Shown here piece by piece: positions 8,991 to 64,000 of a stretch of 64,000 nt of DNA. Position 1 is the stretch's first letter. Each line of letters starts with the position of its first letter. The notes beneath the pieces are model-generated. The model was given only the letters and a program-made list of their open reading frames with translations. It did no database searches and was not told where the DNA came from. Made by a program: the position numbers and the translations under genes. This DNA is from Halobacterium noricense (GTDB taxonomy: Archaea; Halobacteriota; Halobacteria; Halobacteriales; Halobacteriaceae), in contig NZ_CP089468.1 in assembly GCF_021233435.1 (NCBI RefSeq), positions 1,240,001-1,304,000 of the forward strand, given 5' to 3'.

Positions 8991-9070
8991 GTCGTGGTGA
9001 CACGTAGCGAGCGGAAGCCCACCCCTTTAGGGGTGGGTGTAAGCGACAGCATCGCCCACCAGTCCACGCG

Positions 9071-9214
9071 CTACGACTCGTCTGGATGTTCAACCGCTTC
9101 CAACCCCGCTTCGATAATCTCTCGATAGGCGTCTTCGAGGCTCGCGTCCTGCTGTTCAGCGTAGTCTTTCACCCGCCCGTTCAGCGTGTGTGAGATGTCG
9201 ATGTTCGGTCGCAT
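9071..9214 (-). CDS. 47-residue RHH-like protein divergent from tnpB
   Basis: Minus-strand ATG at 9212-9214 gives a 47-residue protein ([20 protein letters not shown], then [20 protein letters not shown]) ending at TAG 9071-9073. A short beta strand followed by two helices matches a ribbon-helix-helix fold. The intergenic DNA contains TATGTC (9219-9224), CAAAA, GACATA (9230-9235), a perfect palindrome placed between its start and that of tnpB. It is therefore a candidate repressor of itself and of tnpB. Small genes of this kind beside haloarchaeal tnpB are familiar to me, but I cannot name the family. Confidence 0.7.
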
Positions 9215-9218
9215 CGTT

Positions 9219-9235
9219 TATGTCCAAAAGACATA
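9219..9235. promoter_or_regulatory. Palindrome between the divergent RHH gene and tnpB
   Basis: TATGTC and GACATA form perfect 6-bp arms around CAAAA. The site is 4 bases from the RHH start and 17 bases from the tnpB start, where a repressor would cover both promoters. An operator for the 47-residue RHH protein is inferred. Confidence 0.5.
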
Positions 9236-9252
9236 TAGACGTAGAACTACAA

Positions 9253-10566
9253 ATGTCTGTTGTCGTGCGGCGAACCAACACGTTCGCGGTTCGGCCGCTC
9301 TCCCCCAAGGACGAGCAACTGCTCCGCGAGTTGTTGGACGCCTCCGCCAGCCTCTGGAACGAACTCACCTACGAACGTCGCCAGAACTTCTTCGACGGCG
9401 AGAGTGTGTGGGATACCGCCGACTACCGCAAGCAGTACGTCGGTGTCCTCGGCTCTGCCACCGCTCAACAGGTCATCCGCAAGAACAGCGAGGCGTGGCG
9501 GTCGTTCTTCTCTGCCCGAGAGGATGGCGAGGACACCGCCCCGCCCGGCTACTGGGGCAACGAGGCCGAGGGCCGGGAGTTGCGGACGTACATCCGCAAC
9601 GACCAGTACACCCTCGAAACCGGCGGGCGGAGCCGCCTCGAAATCCCTGTGGGACAAGACCTGAAAGATGAATACAGGCTTGGCTACCACGACCGTCTGC
9701 GCCTCGAAGTCGCTGGCAACCCCAATTGGGAGGGCGAACAGGGCCGGTTGGAACTGTACTACGACGAGGTGGCCGACACGTTCAGGGCCATTCAACCCGT
9801 CACCGTGCCTGATTCTCGACGGGATTCACCACTGGCTTCGGAAGAAGCCGCGCTGGACGTGGGCGCGAACAACCTCGTCGCCTGTACCACCACCACCGGC
9901 CAGCAGTACCTTTACGAGGGCCGCGACCTGTTCGCCCGCTTCCGGGAAACCACCGAGGAGATTGCCCGCTTGCAGTCCAAACTCTGCGAGGGCCGGTACA
10001 GTAGCCGGCTGATTCGACGCCTCTATCGCAAGCGGACGCGACGGCGCGACCACGCACAGGACGCGCTCGTGCGCGACCTGATGGAACGACTGTACGACAA
10101 GGGCGTTGCCACGGTGTACGTGGGCGACCTCACCGATGTCTTGTCGGAGCACTGGTCGGCAGAGGTGAACGAGAAAACGCACCAGTTCTGGGCGTATCGC
10201 TCGTTCATCGACCGGCTCGCCACGACCGCCGAAGAGTACGGCATCACGGTCGAAGTAAAGTCAGAAGCATACACGACGGCGGAGTGCCCCGAGTGTGGCG
10301 AACGCGATGATACAGAGCGGGACGGCGATGTGTTCCGCTGTCTGTGTGGCTACGAGGGGCACGCCGACCTCGACGCGTCGCGGACGTTCCTCGAACGACA
10401 GGCTGGCGAATCCGAAGTCGGGTCGATGGCACGGCCCGTGCGCCTCAAGTGGGACGACCATAACTGGTCGGAGATACCATACTCTCCCGAGAGGGTAAGT
10501 CCCAACGAGGAGCGCACAAACCGGAGTACCCGCAAGGGGAAACTTGCCTCCGTGGGTGCGGCATAG
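9253..10566 (+). CDS. tnpB: TnpB, RNA-guided nuclease homologue with altered RuvC-II motif
   Basis: This 437-residue TnpB has RuvC-I Asp in [13 protein letters not shown] and RuvC-III Asp in [14 protein letters not shown]. The zinc ribbon is CPEC plus CLC (in FRCLCGYEG). At the RuvC-II position, where most TnpBs have Glu in an EDL motif, it reads VYVGDLTDV, so Glu is replaced by Gly. A second copy of the same lineage at the end of the window (63322-64000) also has VYVGDLTDV. Either another acidic residue takes over or the nuclease is inactive. The start ATG 9253 ([18 protein letters not shown]) follows a short leader. A basic tail after the RuvC domain (residues about 385-437) is typical of haloarchaeal TnpBs. 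Confidence 0.88.
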
Positions 10567-10670
10567 CCAACACCCCCACCGGAGGAATCCCACCCCTTCA
10601 GGGGTGGGAGGATGTCAAGGCTAGTTCCTCGTCGGTCTCCTTCGCTGAGACCGACACGCGATCAGACGAG

Positions 10671-11543
10671 ATGCACAGCACCATCGAAGCGTGGATTGAC
10701 GAGCTCGTGGCTGGCGTCGACGACGCGCAAGCCAGCGACGAATTCCAGGAATGGTTGGACGTCCAGAGTCGGTTCCACGACTACTCGTATCGGAACACGC
10801 TGCTCATCAAGCGCCAGTGCCCGGAGGCGACCAAGGTTGCGGGCTACCGGACGTGGCAGGAGGAGTTCGACCGCCACGTCCAGAAGGGCGAGTCAGCCAT
10901 CTGGATCTGGGCGCCAATCATCGCCAAGCGGTGCCCGGAGTGCGAGAATTCGCCGAGCTACCACGACGACAGCGACTGTGAGTACGACGAGACGCCGCCC
11001 GAGGAGTGGTCGAAAGGCCTGGTCGGATTCAACCCCGCGCCCGTCTTCGACATCTCCCAGACGGAGGGCGAGCCGCTTCCCGAACTCGACACTGCAGCGA
11101 CTGGGGAGGCTGGCGAGCTCGCGCCACGACTCTTGGACATCGCGGACGAGCTTGAGGTGACGGCGCGCATCGTTCCTGCGGACGAATGGACGCATGGCGA
11201 CGCGAAGGGCGTCTGTGAACGGCTCAGCCCCATGGATGCGCAGCCGGTTGTGGAGGTTCGTGACCGGGAGAACGACGCGGACCTCGCACGGACGCTGATC
11301 CACGAGTACGCGCACGCGTTGCTGCATGCTGGCGTGACCGAGACGGCTGAACGGTCGAAGCGTGAAGTCGAGGCGGAATCAGTTGCGTACATCGTCGGGC
11401 GGTACTGCGGGCTAGACACGAGTCGGTCGGCGTTCTACCTCGCCGCGTGGGAAGCAGACGACGCTGAGGTCGTTCGTGACCGGCTTGACCGCATCAGTCG
11501 GACGGCCGAGCAGCTCATCGAGACGCTGGAAGCCGATACCTGA
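10671..11543 (+). CDS. ArdC-like antirestriction / zinc metallopeptidase protein
   Basis: This 290-residue protein has an N-terminal ArdC-type ssDNA-binding region (SRFHDYSYRNTLLIKRQCPE and AGYRTWQEEFDRHVQKGESA). A CPEC plus DSDCEY segment follows, and a C-terminal zinc peptidase domain has HEYAH at about residue 211 and a downstream Glu in KREVEAESVAYIV. ArdC proteins protect incoming single-stranded plasmid DNA from restriction, which fits the transfer genes at 14943-22228. The frame stays open upstream of ATG 10671 and reads KASSSVSFAETDTRSDEMHS, which looks like native N-terminal sequence. It is cut at 10616 by the right end of the tnpB element. The present start is therefore probably an internal Met. 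Confidence 0.8.
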   Translation: MHSTIEAWIDELVAGVDDAQASDEFQEWLDVQSRFHDYSYRNTLLIKRQCPEATKVAGYRTWQEEFDRHVQKGESAIWIWAPIIAKRCPECENSPSYHDDSDCEYDETPPEEWSKGLVGFNPAPVFDISQTEGEPLPELDTAATGEAGELAPRLLDIADELEVTARIVPADEWTHGDAKGVCERLSPMDAQPVVEVRDRENDADLARTLIHEYAHALLHAGVTETAERSKREVEAESVAYIVGRYCGLDTSRSAFYLAAWEADDAEVVRDRLDRISRTAEQLIETLEADT

Positions 11544-22689: not shown

Positions 22690-24095
22690 GGAAGTAGCGC
22701 GGAAACCCACCCCTTTAGGGGTGGGAGGAATCGCGTCCGCTTTACTCAGCAGTCCACCGACGATAGCCCGGCTGACTCCCCCAACTCGGACTTAAATTTT
22801 TACGTGATTCCAGATGCCCATATGAGGTGTGGCGGTCGTTCGGAACATCCAAGTGAAACTCGACGTGCCAGACGCCGCTCACAGCGTCCTCGACGAGACG
22901 TTCGAGCAGTTTCGCTACGCCGCCCAGTCCGTCGCAGAGTATGGCTGGGCCGACGACCCAACCGAGATTATTACTGACCAAAGTGACCTCAACGCCGCCA
23001 CCTATGACGACGTGCGCGAGGACACGGAGCTGCACTCCAACCATGTTCAGTCAGCGCGAAGCCTCGCGGCTAACGCTCTTTCGAACTGCCAAGATCGCAT
23101 CTTCGAGGGAGAAACCGCAAGCGAGCCCACCTTCCGCGGGACAGCCTCGTGTACGGCGTCCGTACAATTACGTACAACGACGACCACTGTACGCTCGCTA
23201 CCGTCGATGGCCGCATTCGCGCTGAATACGTGACGCCCGAAGACGACGAAGGGACGCCGTTCGCCGAATATTGGAATAGTGGGGAGTGGGAGCGCAACGA
23301 GGCGACCCTCCACAAGCGTGACGGCGAGTACTACCTCCACGTTGCCGTGGAGAAAGACCTAGAGACGGATGCGTCGACAGTCGAGAACGGAGCGGTTCTC
23401 GGCGTTGACCTCAACGTTGATGGCTACCTCGCCGTCACCAGCACGGGCTCGTTCCTCGGGAATGCGGACTCCCTCAACCACAAGCGCAGCGAGTACGAAC
23501 GACGGCGTGGTCGTCTGCAACAGACTGGCACTCGATCCGCCCACCTCACCATCCAGCATATTGGATCACGGTTCTCACGCTGGAGTGACGACTACCTCCA
23601 CCGTGTCTCGAAAGCCATCGTGCAAGAAGCGCGCCGCCATGACTGTTCGGCTATCGCGTTCGAGGACCTCGAGCAGATTTGCGACCGCATCTCGAACGCC
23701 AGTAAATTCCAGCAGTGGGCGTTCCGCACGATCCAGGAGTACACCGAGTACAAAGCCGAAGAGCACGGAATACTGGTGGAGACAGTTGAACCCGCATACA
23801 CGAGTCAGCGGTGCAGCCACGCAGCGTGCGGCTTCACACACGACAAGAACCGAAACGGTGACGACTTCGAGTGCCTGAACTGTGGGAAGGAACTCCACGC
23901 CGACTATAATGCCGCGCGGAATATTGGGTGGCGGCTTGTCCAGCACTGGCTCAAGTCTGGTGCTGGACGCGCCAACTGTCAGGTGGCGCTGAAGTCAGGG
24001 ACGCTGAACGCGAACGGCGACTATTCGCCTGCCGAGAGTATCGGCCAGAGCGCGAGTCCACTGACAAGCCCACCGCTTTAGCGGTGGGTCCCTGA
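22690..24095 (+). mobile_element. IS200/IS605-type element with frameshifted tnpB
   Basis: The left-end hairpin CCCACCCC (22706-22713), TTTA, GGGGTGGG (22718-22725) follows AGCGCGGAAA, as at other left ends. The right-end hairpin is CCCACCGC (24069-24076), TTTA, GCGGTGGG (24081-24088), then TCCCTGAC. The gene between is tnpB. No tnpA is present. It has landed beside older tnpB debris. Boundaries are approximate. Confidence 0.65.
22829..24081 (+). pseudogene. tnpB: tnpB with a single-base frameshift
   Basis: The first frame (GTG 22829) reads NIQVKLDVPDAAHSVLDETF and continues to about 23137. The rest is in the next frame from about 23140 (LVYGVRTITYND onward). One missing A (expected CGC GAG GAC, present CGC GGG AC) restores a full TnpB of about 417 residues. 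The RuvC residues are intact in the second part: Asp in VLGVDLNVDG, Glu in AIAFEDLEQI, Asp in LHADYNAARNI. The zinc ribbon is present (CSHAAC and CLNC). The lesion is recent or an assembly error, since the rest looks undamaged. Confidence 0.8.
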
Positions 24096-45599: not shown

Positions 45600-47050
45600 G
45601 GACGCGGTGGATCACAGCGGTAGCAGCGCGGAAGCCCATCCCTTCAGGGGTGGGAGGAAGCGCGTAAGCGTCGTGCGACAATCCACCGATACCGGCATTT
45701 CCGACTCTCCCTACTTCAAAGATATTAATAAGGTATAGCGATTCTTGTGATGTACATGGTGTGGGAGGTAACGCGAACGGTGCGGGTTCGCCTTGACGTG
45801 CCCGACGACCGGAAGAGCGACCTCCACGCCACCAACAAGAAATTCCAATACTGTGCCAACCGTACTAGTGAGTGGGCGTGGCGCTATCTCGACGAAGACT
45901 GCGTCACCAGCAAAAACAAAGCTGAAGCCGCCATCTACGACGACCTCCGCGAAGAAACCGACTCCCTCCACGCCAATCTCGTCCAAAAAGCGATCAAACG
46001 CGCCACCGACGACATCGACAACTGCGTAGACAGGCTGGCCGAGGGTGAGAACACCAGCCAGCCCGAATACGACACCTTCAGCATCGTCTACGACAAGCGA
46101 GCCGCCACCTACTACCGTGACAAAGTGAGCCTCGCCACCGTCAACGGCCGTGTCGAATGCGACTACGACCTCCCGGAGAATCCAGACGGCACACCACACG
46201 GTCAGTACCTCCTCAACGACGACTACTCATTTTCGACGAGTACCGTACATTACGATAGTGAGGCAGATGAGTTCTACCTGCATGCGGCGATGGAGCAAGA
46301 GGTCGACGCGAGCAGTCCTGAGAAAGCCCAGGATTCGAGAGTCCTGGGCGTGGACTGCAACGTCAACGACCACATCGCCGCCACCAGCACCGGTGCGTTC
46401 ATCGGCAACGCCGACTACCTCAACCACCAACGCCGCGAGTTCGAGAAGCGTCGTGCCAGCCTCCAACAGACTGGCACGCGCAGCGCGCACGTGACGTATC
46501 AGCGCATCGGTGGCAGGTTCGGTCGCTGGAGTGAGGATTACCTGCATCAGTGCTCCAAACAACTCGTTGTAGAAGCCCAACGCCATGGCTGCACGCACAT
46601 CGCGTTCGAGGATCTCGAGCAGATTCGCGATCGTATCAGTGATGGGAAGAAGTTCCAGCAGTGGGCGTTCCGCAAACTGCAGGAACAAACAGCGAATAAA
46701 GCAGAACTGGCTGGAATCGTTGTCGAGACAGTCGAACCGTCGTACACGAGCCAGCAGTGCTCGAAATGCGGCTGTACGCTCGAGGAAAACCGCAACGGCC
46801 AACAGTTCGAGTGCTTGGACTGCTCGTACTCGGTGAATGCGGATTATAATGCGGCGAAGAATGTTGCGCGGAAACTTGCACTCAAACTCCAGCGGGGGCA
46901 GAAGTCCCCCGCTGGAGGGGCGTTCTGTCAGTACGCCCTGAAGTCGGGGGTGATGACCGTGAGCGCTACTGAAGTGGCGTCCGACACCCCAGTGTCGGCA
47001 GAACGGGAGTCCACTGACAAGCCCACCCCTTTAGGGGTGGGTCACTGACG
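45600..47050 (+). mobile_element. IS200/IS605-type element with intact tnpB
   Basis: The left end has AGCGCGGAAG then CCCATCCC (45635-45642), TTCA, GGGGTGGG (45647-45654) and GGAAGCGCG. The right end has CCCACCCC (47022-47029), TTTA, GGGGTGGG (47034-47041), then TCACTGAC. tnpB fills the space and no tnpA is present. The guide would start in the flank after TCACTGAC or within it; the exact RNA end cannot be read from the sequence. The right end replaced the last codons of a minus-strand antitoxin gene. Confidence 0.72.
45756..47048 (+). CDS. tnpB: TnpB, RNA-guided nuclease, apparently intact
   Basis: A 430-residue TnpB (start MVWEVTRTVRVRLDVPD at 45756; ATG 45750 is possible). All three RuvC residues are present: Asp in RVLGVDCNVNDHIA, Glu in THIAFEDLEQIRDR and Asp in SVNADYNAAKNVARK. 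The zinc ribbon is CSKCGCTLEENRNGQQFECL ending in DC. The N-terminal helical domain (about 30-130) and the beta-barrel parts are continuous. It is the only undamaged TnpB with a complete catalytic triad in the window. It shares much sequence with the frameshifted copy at 22829-24081. Confidence 0.92.
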   Translation: MVWEVTRTVRVRLDVPDDRKSDLHATNKKFQYCANRTSEWAWRYLDEDCVTSKNKAEAAIYDDLREETDSLHANLVQKAIKRATDDIDNCVDRLAEGENTSQPEYDTFSIVYDKRAATYYRDKVSLATVNGRVECDYDLPENPDGTPHGQYLLNDDYSFSTSTVHYDSEADEFYLHAAMEQEVDASSPEKAQDSRVLGVDCNVNDHIAATSTGAFIGNADYLNHQRREFEKRRASLQQTGTRSAHVTYQRIGGRFGRWSEDYLHQCSKQLVVEAQRHGCTHIAFEDLEQIRDRISDGKKFQQWAFRKLQEQTANKAELAGIVVETVEPSYTSQQCSKCGCTLEENRNGQQFECLDCSYSVNADYNAAKNVARKLALKLQRGQKSPAGGAFCQYALKSGVMTVSATEVASDTPVSAERESTDKPTPLGVGH

Positions 47051-63272: not shown

Positions 63273-64000
63273 CATCCTCCCCGGCGTGAACGCCGGGGTT
63301 TCCTCACGCTGGGAGTCTCGGCTATGCCGAGTCCACGGAGGCAACTTGCGGGTTCGTGTGCTCCTCGTTGGGACGGGGAGAGCGTGATAACTCCAGCCAA
63401 TCGTGACTATCCCACTTGAGGCACACAGGCCGTGCCATCGGCCGTGCTACCGTTTCGTGCCGCCTCAGGAACGTCTCGCTCGCGGCGAGGTCCGCGGGCC
63501 TTCGAAGCCGCAGGTACACGTCAGCGTGTCCTGATGTCGCGTCGTGTCCTCGGTCGAACTGCAGTTCGGACACGTCTGCGAGGTCCACGCTTCCGTGCGG
63601 ACTTCGACGGTGATGCCGAACTCCTCGGCAGTATACACGAGACGGTCGATGAACCGCCGGAACGCCCAGAAGTTGTGCAGCTTGGCGTTCGTCCGAACCG
63701 ACCAGTGCGTCTCGGGTACGTCGGTTAAGTCGCCGACGTACACCGTCGAAACACCCTCGTCGTGCAGCCGTTCGACCAGATCCCGACAGAGTGCGTCCAT
63801 CGCGTGGTCGCGCCGCCGCGTTTGACGACGGTACAGTGAGTCGATTCGCTTCGAACTGTACCGGCCATCCTCGAGCTTCGACTGGAGTTCGGCAATTCGT
63901 TGCGTGGTCTCGCGGAACCGTTCGAACAGGTCGCGTCCTTCGTAGAGGTGCTGCTCGCCGGTCGTGGTCGTACAGGCGACGATATTGTTCGCGCCGATGT
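63272..64000 (-). mobile_element. Partial IS200/IS605-type element, right part
   Basis: The right-end hairpin is CCCCGGCG (63279-63286), TGAA, CGCCGGGG (63291-63298), followed on the minus strand by AGGATGT. This is the same structure as at 10589-10615 with a different stem sequence. tnpB of the same lineage as 9253-10566 runs into the window edge. Confidence 0.7.
63322..64000 (-). pseudogene. tnpB: tnpB (same lineage as 9253), frameshifted and cut by the window end
   Basis: The frame from the window edge reads [20 protein letters not shown] through [20 protein letters not shown] to [10 protein letters not shown]. Near 63499 one base is missing (expected GGC CAC GCG, present GGC CCG CG). The RuvC-III part ([14 protein letters not shown]) and the tail are in another frame, ending at 63322. 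As in the other member, RuvC-II has Gly (VGDL) where Glu is expected. It is inactive unless the frameshift is an error. The N-terminal part lies outside the window. Confidence 0.8.

What the first reader, a model, noticed from the sequence alone, without database searches (positions are those of the whole stretch)
10090..10140. TnpB lineage with Gly replacing the RuvC-II Glu
Two TnpBs here (9253-10566 and 63322-64000) read VYVGDLTDV where the catalytic Glu of RuvC-II is expected (as in AFEDLEQI of the copies at 22829 and 45756). Both keep the RuvC-I Asp. The first keeps the RuvC-III Asp ([10 protein letters not shown]) and the second has it in a shifted frame. Conservation of the change in two diverged copies suggests that it is fixed in the lineage and not decay. 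The protein may use another acidic residue or have become a guide-directed binding protein, as described for some TnpB-derived repressors.
Basis: partly seen in the sequence, partly recalled or inferred. Interest (0 to 1): 0.6.

Follow-up and report, generated by a model that had tools for sequence, protein, structure and literature searches.

The report
TnpB nuclease with relocated catalytic glutamate
This transposon-borne, RNA-guided DNA-cutting protein has not lost its catalytic glutamate: the residue sits 47 positions further along the chain, an arrangement already described for other TnpBs and for the eukaryotic Fanzors, so it is most likely an ordinary working nuclease.

Summary
The Gly is real (codon 10123-10125, residue 291 of the TnpB at 9253-10566) and fixed in the lineage, but the enzyme is not missing its glutamate. 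E338 (codon 10264-10266) sits exactly six residues before the zinc-finger CxxC: the published 'alternative glutamate' (Ealt) of Fanzors and of one TnpB clade (PMC10711439). All 78 lineage members with both sites readable are Gly/Glu; in a 95-sequence alignment every TnpB has Glu at exactly one of the two sites (31 Gly/Glu, 64 Glu/Pro or Ala). Both aspartates and the zinc ligands are kept. A confident AlphaFold model places E338 directly after RuvC strand 5, where the Fanzor catalytic Glu is described. The gene lies in a complete IS200/IS605-type element (TGAC|9002-10618|guide) with a covarying right-end hairpin, varied guides and an empty site in a relative, so it looks mobile and selected, not a domesticated repressor. 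The second copy is a truncated, frameshifted relic on the minus strand. New details: all 65 full-length members have a CxC second zinc knuckle and escape the published Ealt pattern; most elements carry a conserved divergent 47-codon ORF. Cleavage was not tested. New member of a known kind; low interest.

The parts
8998..9001 (+). TGAC target motif / likely TAM at the left boundary
   Evidence: similarity among many copies starts right after TGAC; empty site in relative G067 reads TGAC|GGCTAG
9002..10618 (+). IS200/IS605-type element, whole
   Evidence: ends from comparison of copies, coordinates, empty site
9018..9037 (+). left-end subterminal hairpin CCCACCCCTTTAGGGGTGGG
   Evidence: sequence
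9071..9214 (-). conserved divergent small ORF, 47 codons ([47 protein letters not shown])
   Evidence: present upstream of 55 of 75 lineage loci, dN/dS 0.21; no Pfam or NCBIfam match
9253..10566 (+). tnpB, 437 aa, alternative-glutamate type
9856..9858 (+). RuvC-I Asp202 codon
   Evidence: invariant
10123..10125 (+). Gly291 codon, at the canonical RuvC-II Glu position
10264..10266 (+). Glu338 codon, alternative catalytic glutamate (Ealt)
   Evidence: definition in PMC10711439
10285..10347 (+). zinc finger, CxxC (345, 348) and CxC (363, 365)
10366..10368 (+). RuvC-III Asp372 codon
10589..10608 (+). right-end hairpin, part of the inferred guide-RNA scaffold
   Evidence: 26 distinct stems 93% paired against 65% with shuffled partners
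10607..10618 (+). conserved right end GGAGGATGTCAA
10619..10638 (+). inferred guide: flanking host sequence GGCTAGTTCC...; length of about 20 nt assumed from known TnpBs
   Evidence: variable between copies; contiguous with TGAC in the empty site; guide use is inferred
63322..64000 (-). second copy of the lineage, truncated and frameshifted relic; Gly codon 63732-63734, Ealt codon 63591-63593

Best explanation
Copy 1 is an IS200/IS605-family TnpB, an RNA-guided DNA endonuclease of the alternative-glutamate type. The RuvC-II Glu has moved from the end of RuvC strand 4 (Gly291 here) to the residue right after strand 5, six residues before the zinc finger (Glu338), and completes the metal site with Asp202 and Asp372. 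Guided by an RNA made from the element's right end plus the flanking host sequence, it most likely cuts TGAC-adjacent target sites that the element has left, which favours retention of the element. Shown here: residue positions, conservation, reciprocity with the canonical site, element ends, empty site, hairpin covariation. Inferred from known TnpBs and Fanzors: metal binding, cleavage, guide use, retention function.
For: Glu exactly six residues before CxxC, as in the published Ealt definition. Gly/Glu in 78 of 78 readable lineage members. Glu at exactly one of the two sites in all 95 aligned TnpBs and in all 27 loci of a further set, mostly other archaea. D202, E338, D372 and the zinc ligands invariant in 31 lineage members; E338 coded by both GAA and GAG. 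AlphaFold model (pLDDT 82) puts E338 right after strand 5, the place described for the catalytic Glu (PMC11423790); best fold matches Cas12f, ISDra2 TnpB and mimivirus Fanzor2. SpuFz1 E541 binds Mg2+ with D383 and D606 (PMC10432273). Intact ORFs in many genera, defined ends and empty site, covarying right-end hairpin.
Against: No cleavage, metal-binding or RNA data for this protein. The one archaeal TnpB whose RuvC residues were found tested in a paper (SisTnpB1: D187, E271, D335) has spacing that fits the canonical Glu, so it does not prove an active archaeal Ealt enzyme. No tnpA lies beside this copy.
Confidence: 0.9

Rival explanations
1. A nuclease-dead, guide-directed DNA-binding protein (TldR-like repressor) that lost the RuvC-II Glu and now regulates transcription.
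For: The canonical Glu position is Gly throughout the lineage. Ten loci in several genera share the same guide.
Against: A complete acidic set is conserved, with Glu at the known alternative position. TldRs are described as RuvC-inactivated and tied to non-transposon genes (PMC13418256); here guides and flanks vary between most copies and an empty site exists. The ten loci with one guide share about 3-5 kb of 91-96% identical flank, which suggests recent joint transfer.
Confidence: 0.04
2. A decayed transposase gene: the Glu was lost by drift and the protein does nothing.
For: The second window copy is truncated and frameshifted; some relatives carry internal stops.
Against: Full-length intact ORFs in dozens of genera, catalytic residues kept through synonymous codon change, more than 100 invariant positions in 31 members.
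Confidence: 0.02
3. The catalytic Glu is replaced by the neighbouring acidic residue in the same loop (Asp292 or Asp295), not by E338.
For: Asp292 directly follows the Gly in most members.
Against: Asp292 is not invariant: relatives read VYVGALTDV and VYIGGLTDV, and the same Asp occurs in canonical E-D-L TnpBs; E338 is invariant and reciprocal with the canonical Glu.
Confidence: 0.02

Closest known systems
Alternative-glutamate (Ealt) TnpB clade with D-phi-G RuvC-I motif (Yoon et al. 2023, PMC10711439)
   Same: Glu six residues before the zinc finger, hydrophobic residue after the RuvC-I Asp (DVG here), canonical Glu absent
   Different: Second zinc knuckle is CxC, so the published regular expression matches 0 of 65 full-length members; archaeal, IS200/IS605 type
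ISHhu1 (IS200/IS605 element of Halobacterium hubeiense)
   Same: TnpB about 70% identical, same Gly/Glu arrangement
   Different: Carries tnpA next to tnpB; the window copy has none and has the divergent small ORF instead
Fanzor1/Fanzor2 (SpuFz1, mimivirus Fanzor2)
   Same: Relocated RuvC Glu before the zinc finger; related fold (Z 18.5 to 9b0l)
   Different: Fanzors carry DPG at RuvC-I and are eukaryotic or viral; here DVG
ISDra2 TnpB
   Same: Fold (Z 20-21), element type, right-end guide RNA logic
   Different: ISDra2 TnpB has the canonical Glu (general knowledge)
TldR (TnpB-like nuclease-dead repressors)
   Same: TnpB-derived; canonical RuvC-II position differs from active ISDra2 TnpB
   Different: TldRs have an inactivated RuvC and non-transposon partner genes; neither is seen here

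Membership tests
Ealt-type TnpB | Glu six residues upstream of the zinc-finger CxxC | tested here: met
   E338, C345, C348
Ealt-type TnpB | canonical RuvC-II Glu absent | tested here: met
   Gly291 in 78 of 78 readable members
Ealt-type TnpB | match to the published search pattern (CxxC ... CxxC zinc finger) | tested here: not met
   0 of 65; all 65 match when the second knuckle is CxC. This is a search filter of the paper, not a catalytic criterion
Ealt-type TnpB | RNA-guided DNA cleavage dependent on the relocated Glu | not testable with these tools
   needs a cleavage assay with mutants
Fanzor / pro-Fanzor | DPG at RuvC-I together with Ealt | tested here: not met
   DVG at 202-204
TldR (nuclease-dead repressor) | RuvC acidic residues lost | tested here: not met
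   D202, E338, D372 invariant
TldR (nuclease-dead repressor) | immobile, stable association with a non-transposon gene | tested here: not met
   flanks and guides vary between most copies, empty site found; ten loci with one shared flank look like a spread plasmid segment
IS200/IS605 element | subterminal hairpins, TCAA right end, insertion 3' of a short fixed motif without target duplication | tested here: met
   comparison with known IS200/IS605 ends is from general knowledge
IS200/IS605 element | own Y1 transposase tnpA | tested here: not met
   none beside this copy; four well-matched Y1 genes elsewhere in the genome; tnpA beside tnpB in some close relatives. TnpB-only IS200/IS605 elements are known

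The most novel reading that the evidence does not exclude
The lineage is a TnpB-only transposon that carries its own small DNA-binding regulator: the conserved 47-codon ORF transcribed away from tnpB represses tnpB or guide-RNA expression, or helps transposition, alongside a relocated-Glu TnpB whose active site behaves differently (for example with less collateral ssDNA cutting, as suggested for Ealt enzymes in PMC10711439).
Probability: 0.25. Interest if true: 0.4.

Novelty: new member of a known kind. Interest (0 to 1): 0.2.

Why it matters
It is a caution for genome scans: checks of the active site position by position against ISDra2 TnpB will call Ealt TnpBs 'dead', and the published Ealt pattern misses this common haloarchaeal lineage because of its CxC knuckle. 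In this one genome 10 of 26 TnpBs that could be typed have the Ealt arrangement, and close relatives of this protein occur in 123 of 194 haloarchaeal genomes sampled. If cleavage is confirmed, these would be halophilic relocated-Glu nucleases on which the effect of the Ealt site on collateral cutting can be tested beside canonical TnpBs of the same host.

Tried and rejected
A first AlphaFold job on the lineage alone gave a poor model (pLDDT 63.6); replaced by a 95-sequence alignment. A looser HMM alignment suggested some viral TnpBs with Lys, Arg or Gln at the canonical site; those that entered the full MAFFT alignment have Glu there; the rest, including a 279-aa fragment read as Gly/Pro (L149), were left unresolved. 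Rfam found no family above threshold in the window; weak HgcC hits at the right-end hairpin are below threshold and were taken as chance. Viral-contig scans with P0001 and two other Ealt proteins found no relatives. SisTnpB1 was considered as proof of an active archaeal Ealt enzyme and rejected, because its residue spacing fits the canonical Glu. A residue-level alignment to Fanzor2 (9b0l) could not be printed because Cas12f chains ranked above it. Ten loci with an identical guide were considered as possible domestication; a block of about 3-5 kb around the element is 91-96% identical across genera, so recent joint transfer is likelier. Papers by Jiang (2023), Altae-Tran (2023) and Wiegand (2024) were looked for and not held; nothing is cited from them.

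Full report
OBSERVATION. The TnpB at 9253-10566 (+, 437 aa; Pfam OrfB_IS605 and Cas12f1-like_TNB; NCBIfam guided_TnpB) reads VYVGDLTDV with Gly291 (codon 10123-10125) where canonical TnpBs have the RuvC-II Glu; Asp202 and Asp372 are kept. The second copy reads the same motif on the minus strand (63465-63998) and continues past the window edge; its match starts only at about residue 58 and it is frameshifted before RuvC-III. The canonical copies at 23074-24078 and 45756-47045 read IAFEDLEQI.

THE GLU IS PRESENT ELSEWHERE. Forty-seven residues after Gly291 stands Glu338 (codon 10264-10266) in [16 protein letters not shown]: a Glu, exactly six residues, then CxxC. Yoon et al. 2023 (PMC10711439) call this Ealt: canonical TnpBs have the Glu about 50 residues upstream of the zinc finger, Fanzors and a D-phi-G TnpB clade have it six residues upstream. 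The degraded second copy has it too (TEAWTSQTC).

RECIPROCITY. All 78 lineage members with both columns readable are Gly/Glu. Among the other TnpBs of the same genome 16 are Glu/(Pro or Ser) and 7 are Gly/Glu (the eighth Gly/Glu row listed there, L111, is a partial lineage member from another genome). In a 95-sequence MAFFT alignment that adds TnpBs from viral contigs, 31 are Gly/Glu, 59 Glu/Pro, 5 Glu/Ala, none has both and none neither. In 27 loci, mostly from other archaea and including two archaeal-virus elements (SMV1 and ISDka2), 18 are Gly/Glu and 9 Glu/other (four of these are lineage members and one repeats an own-genome copy). In eight diverse Ealt proteins the Glu is one of eight invariant columns. 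E338 is coded GAA 65 times and GAG 13 times, Gly291 by four codons, so the residues are held by selection on the protein.

STRUCTURE. A first model was poor. With 95 sequences AlphaFold gave mean pLDDT 82: Gly291 lies near the end of RuvC strand 285-292, Glu338 directly after strand 332-337, Asp202 near the end of strand 197-203, Asp372 at the start of helix 371-384. PMC11423790 places the catalytic Glu in the loop between the fifth strand and the TNB domain, and PMC10432273 reports SpuFz1 E541 with D383 and D606 binding Mg2+. The best solved-structure matches are Cas12f (Z 23), ISDra2 TnpB (Z 21) and, lower, mimivirus Fanzor2 (Z 18.5). Side-chain distances could not be measured.

PHYLOGENY. 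With the two trait columns blanked, trees of 34 and 77 TnpBs need two changes between states (shuffled means 11.5 and 25.7) and do not reject a single Ealt clade (AU p 0.21 and 0.505). This agrees with the separation of Ecan and Ealt reported by Yoon et al.; long branches are involved, so one origin is not shown.

ELEMENT. Comparing 60-75 copies, similarity starts right after TGAC and ends at GTCAA. In the window the element is 9002-10618 with TGAC at 8998-9001. Relative G067 has the two flanks joined as TGAC|GGCTAG, and G201 agrees with more differences: an empty site without target duplication, in the upstream region of an ArdC-like gene. The right-end hairpin covaries: 26 distinct stems are 93% paired, against 65% with shuffled partners (highest of 1000 shuffles 74%). 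The flanking guides differ between most copies. This is the anatomy of an IS200/IS605 element with a right-end guide RNA. Transcription of that RNA is inferred here; such right-end RNAs are known from Halobacterium salinarum (PMC12558985). The window copy has no tnpA beside it; the genome holds four well-matched Y1 transposase genes that could act in trans. Some close relatives, including ISHhu1, carry tnpA next to tnpB.

MECHANISM. Most likely an active RNA-guided nuclease whose D202-E338-D372 site is rearranged, and which favours retention of its element. Shown: positions, conservation, reciprocity, ends, empty site, covariation. Inferred: metal binding, cleavage, guide RNA, retention. The repressor reading fails its main test, since a complete acidic set is conserved, and no domestication signature was found.

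WHAT IS NEW. All 65 full-length members have CxC as second zinc knuckle, so the published Ealt regular expression matches none of them. A divergent ORF of 47 codons (9071-9214, minus) or a homologue lies upstream of 55 of 75 lineage loci, with dN/dS 0.21 over 41 distinct copies; nine further loci carry a different small ORF (type MVAVRIEFDDEEQ) in the same place. It matches no Pfam or NCBIfam model and is annotated 'hypothetical protein' or not at all in plasmid records. Its resemblance to ribbon-helix-helix proteins is by eye only.

VERDICT. Observation confirmed, with the strand and decay of copy 2 noted; interpretation partly supported; new member of a known kind; low interest.

Noticed in passing
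window 9071-9214 (minus) and equivalent sites in 55 of 75 lineage loci: Conserved divergent 47-codon ORF upstream of tnpB, inside the element, under purifying selection (dN/dS 0.21), with no Pfam or NCBIfam match; looks ribbon-helix-helix-like by eye. Nine loci carry a different small ORF (RIEFDD type) in the same place.
   Followed up: partly
L038, L039, L060-L063, L065, L078, L103, L108: Ten copies in several genera share the same guide TGGGCGCGATCTGGGCGA and about 3-5 kb of 91-96% identical surroundings, with an Orc1/Cdc6-like ORF in some; looks like a recently spread plasmid segment.
   Followed up: partly
G000, whole genome: One haloarchaeal genome holds about 28 TnpB genes or fragments; of 26 that could be typed, 10 have the relocated Glu and 16 the canonical one.
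   Followed up: yes
L025 and L027 with L251 and L252: Two further Ealt TnpBs of the same genome lie next to Y1 tnpA genes, so full tnpA-tnpB elements with the relocated Glu also exist here.
   Followed up: no
window 10619-11543: The element sits just upstream of an ArdC-like gene whose upstream region is widespread on haloarchaeal plasmids, although this copy lies on the largest contig.
   Followed up: no
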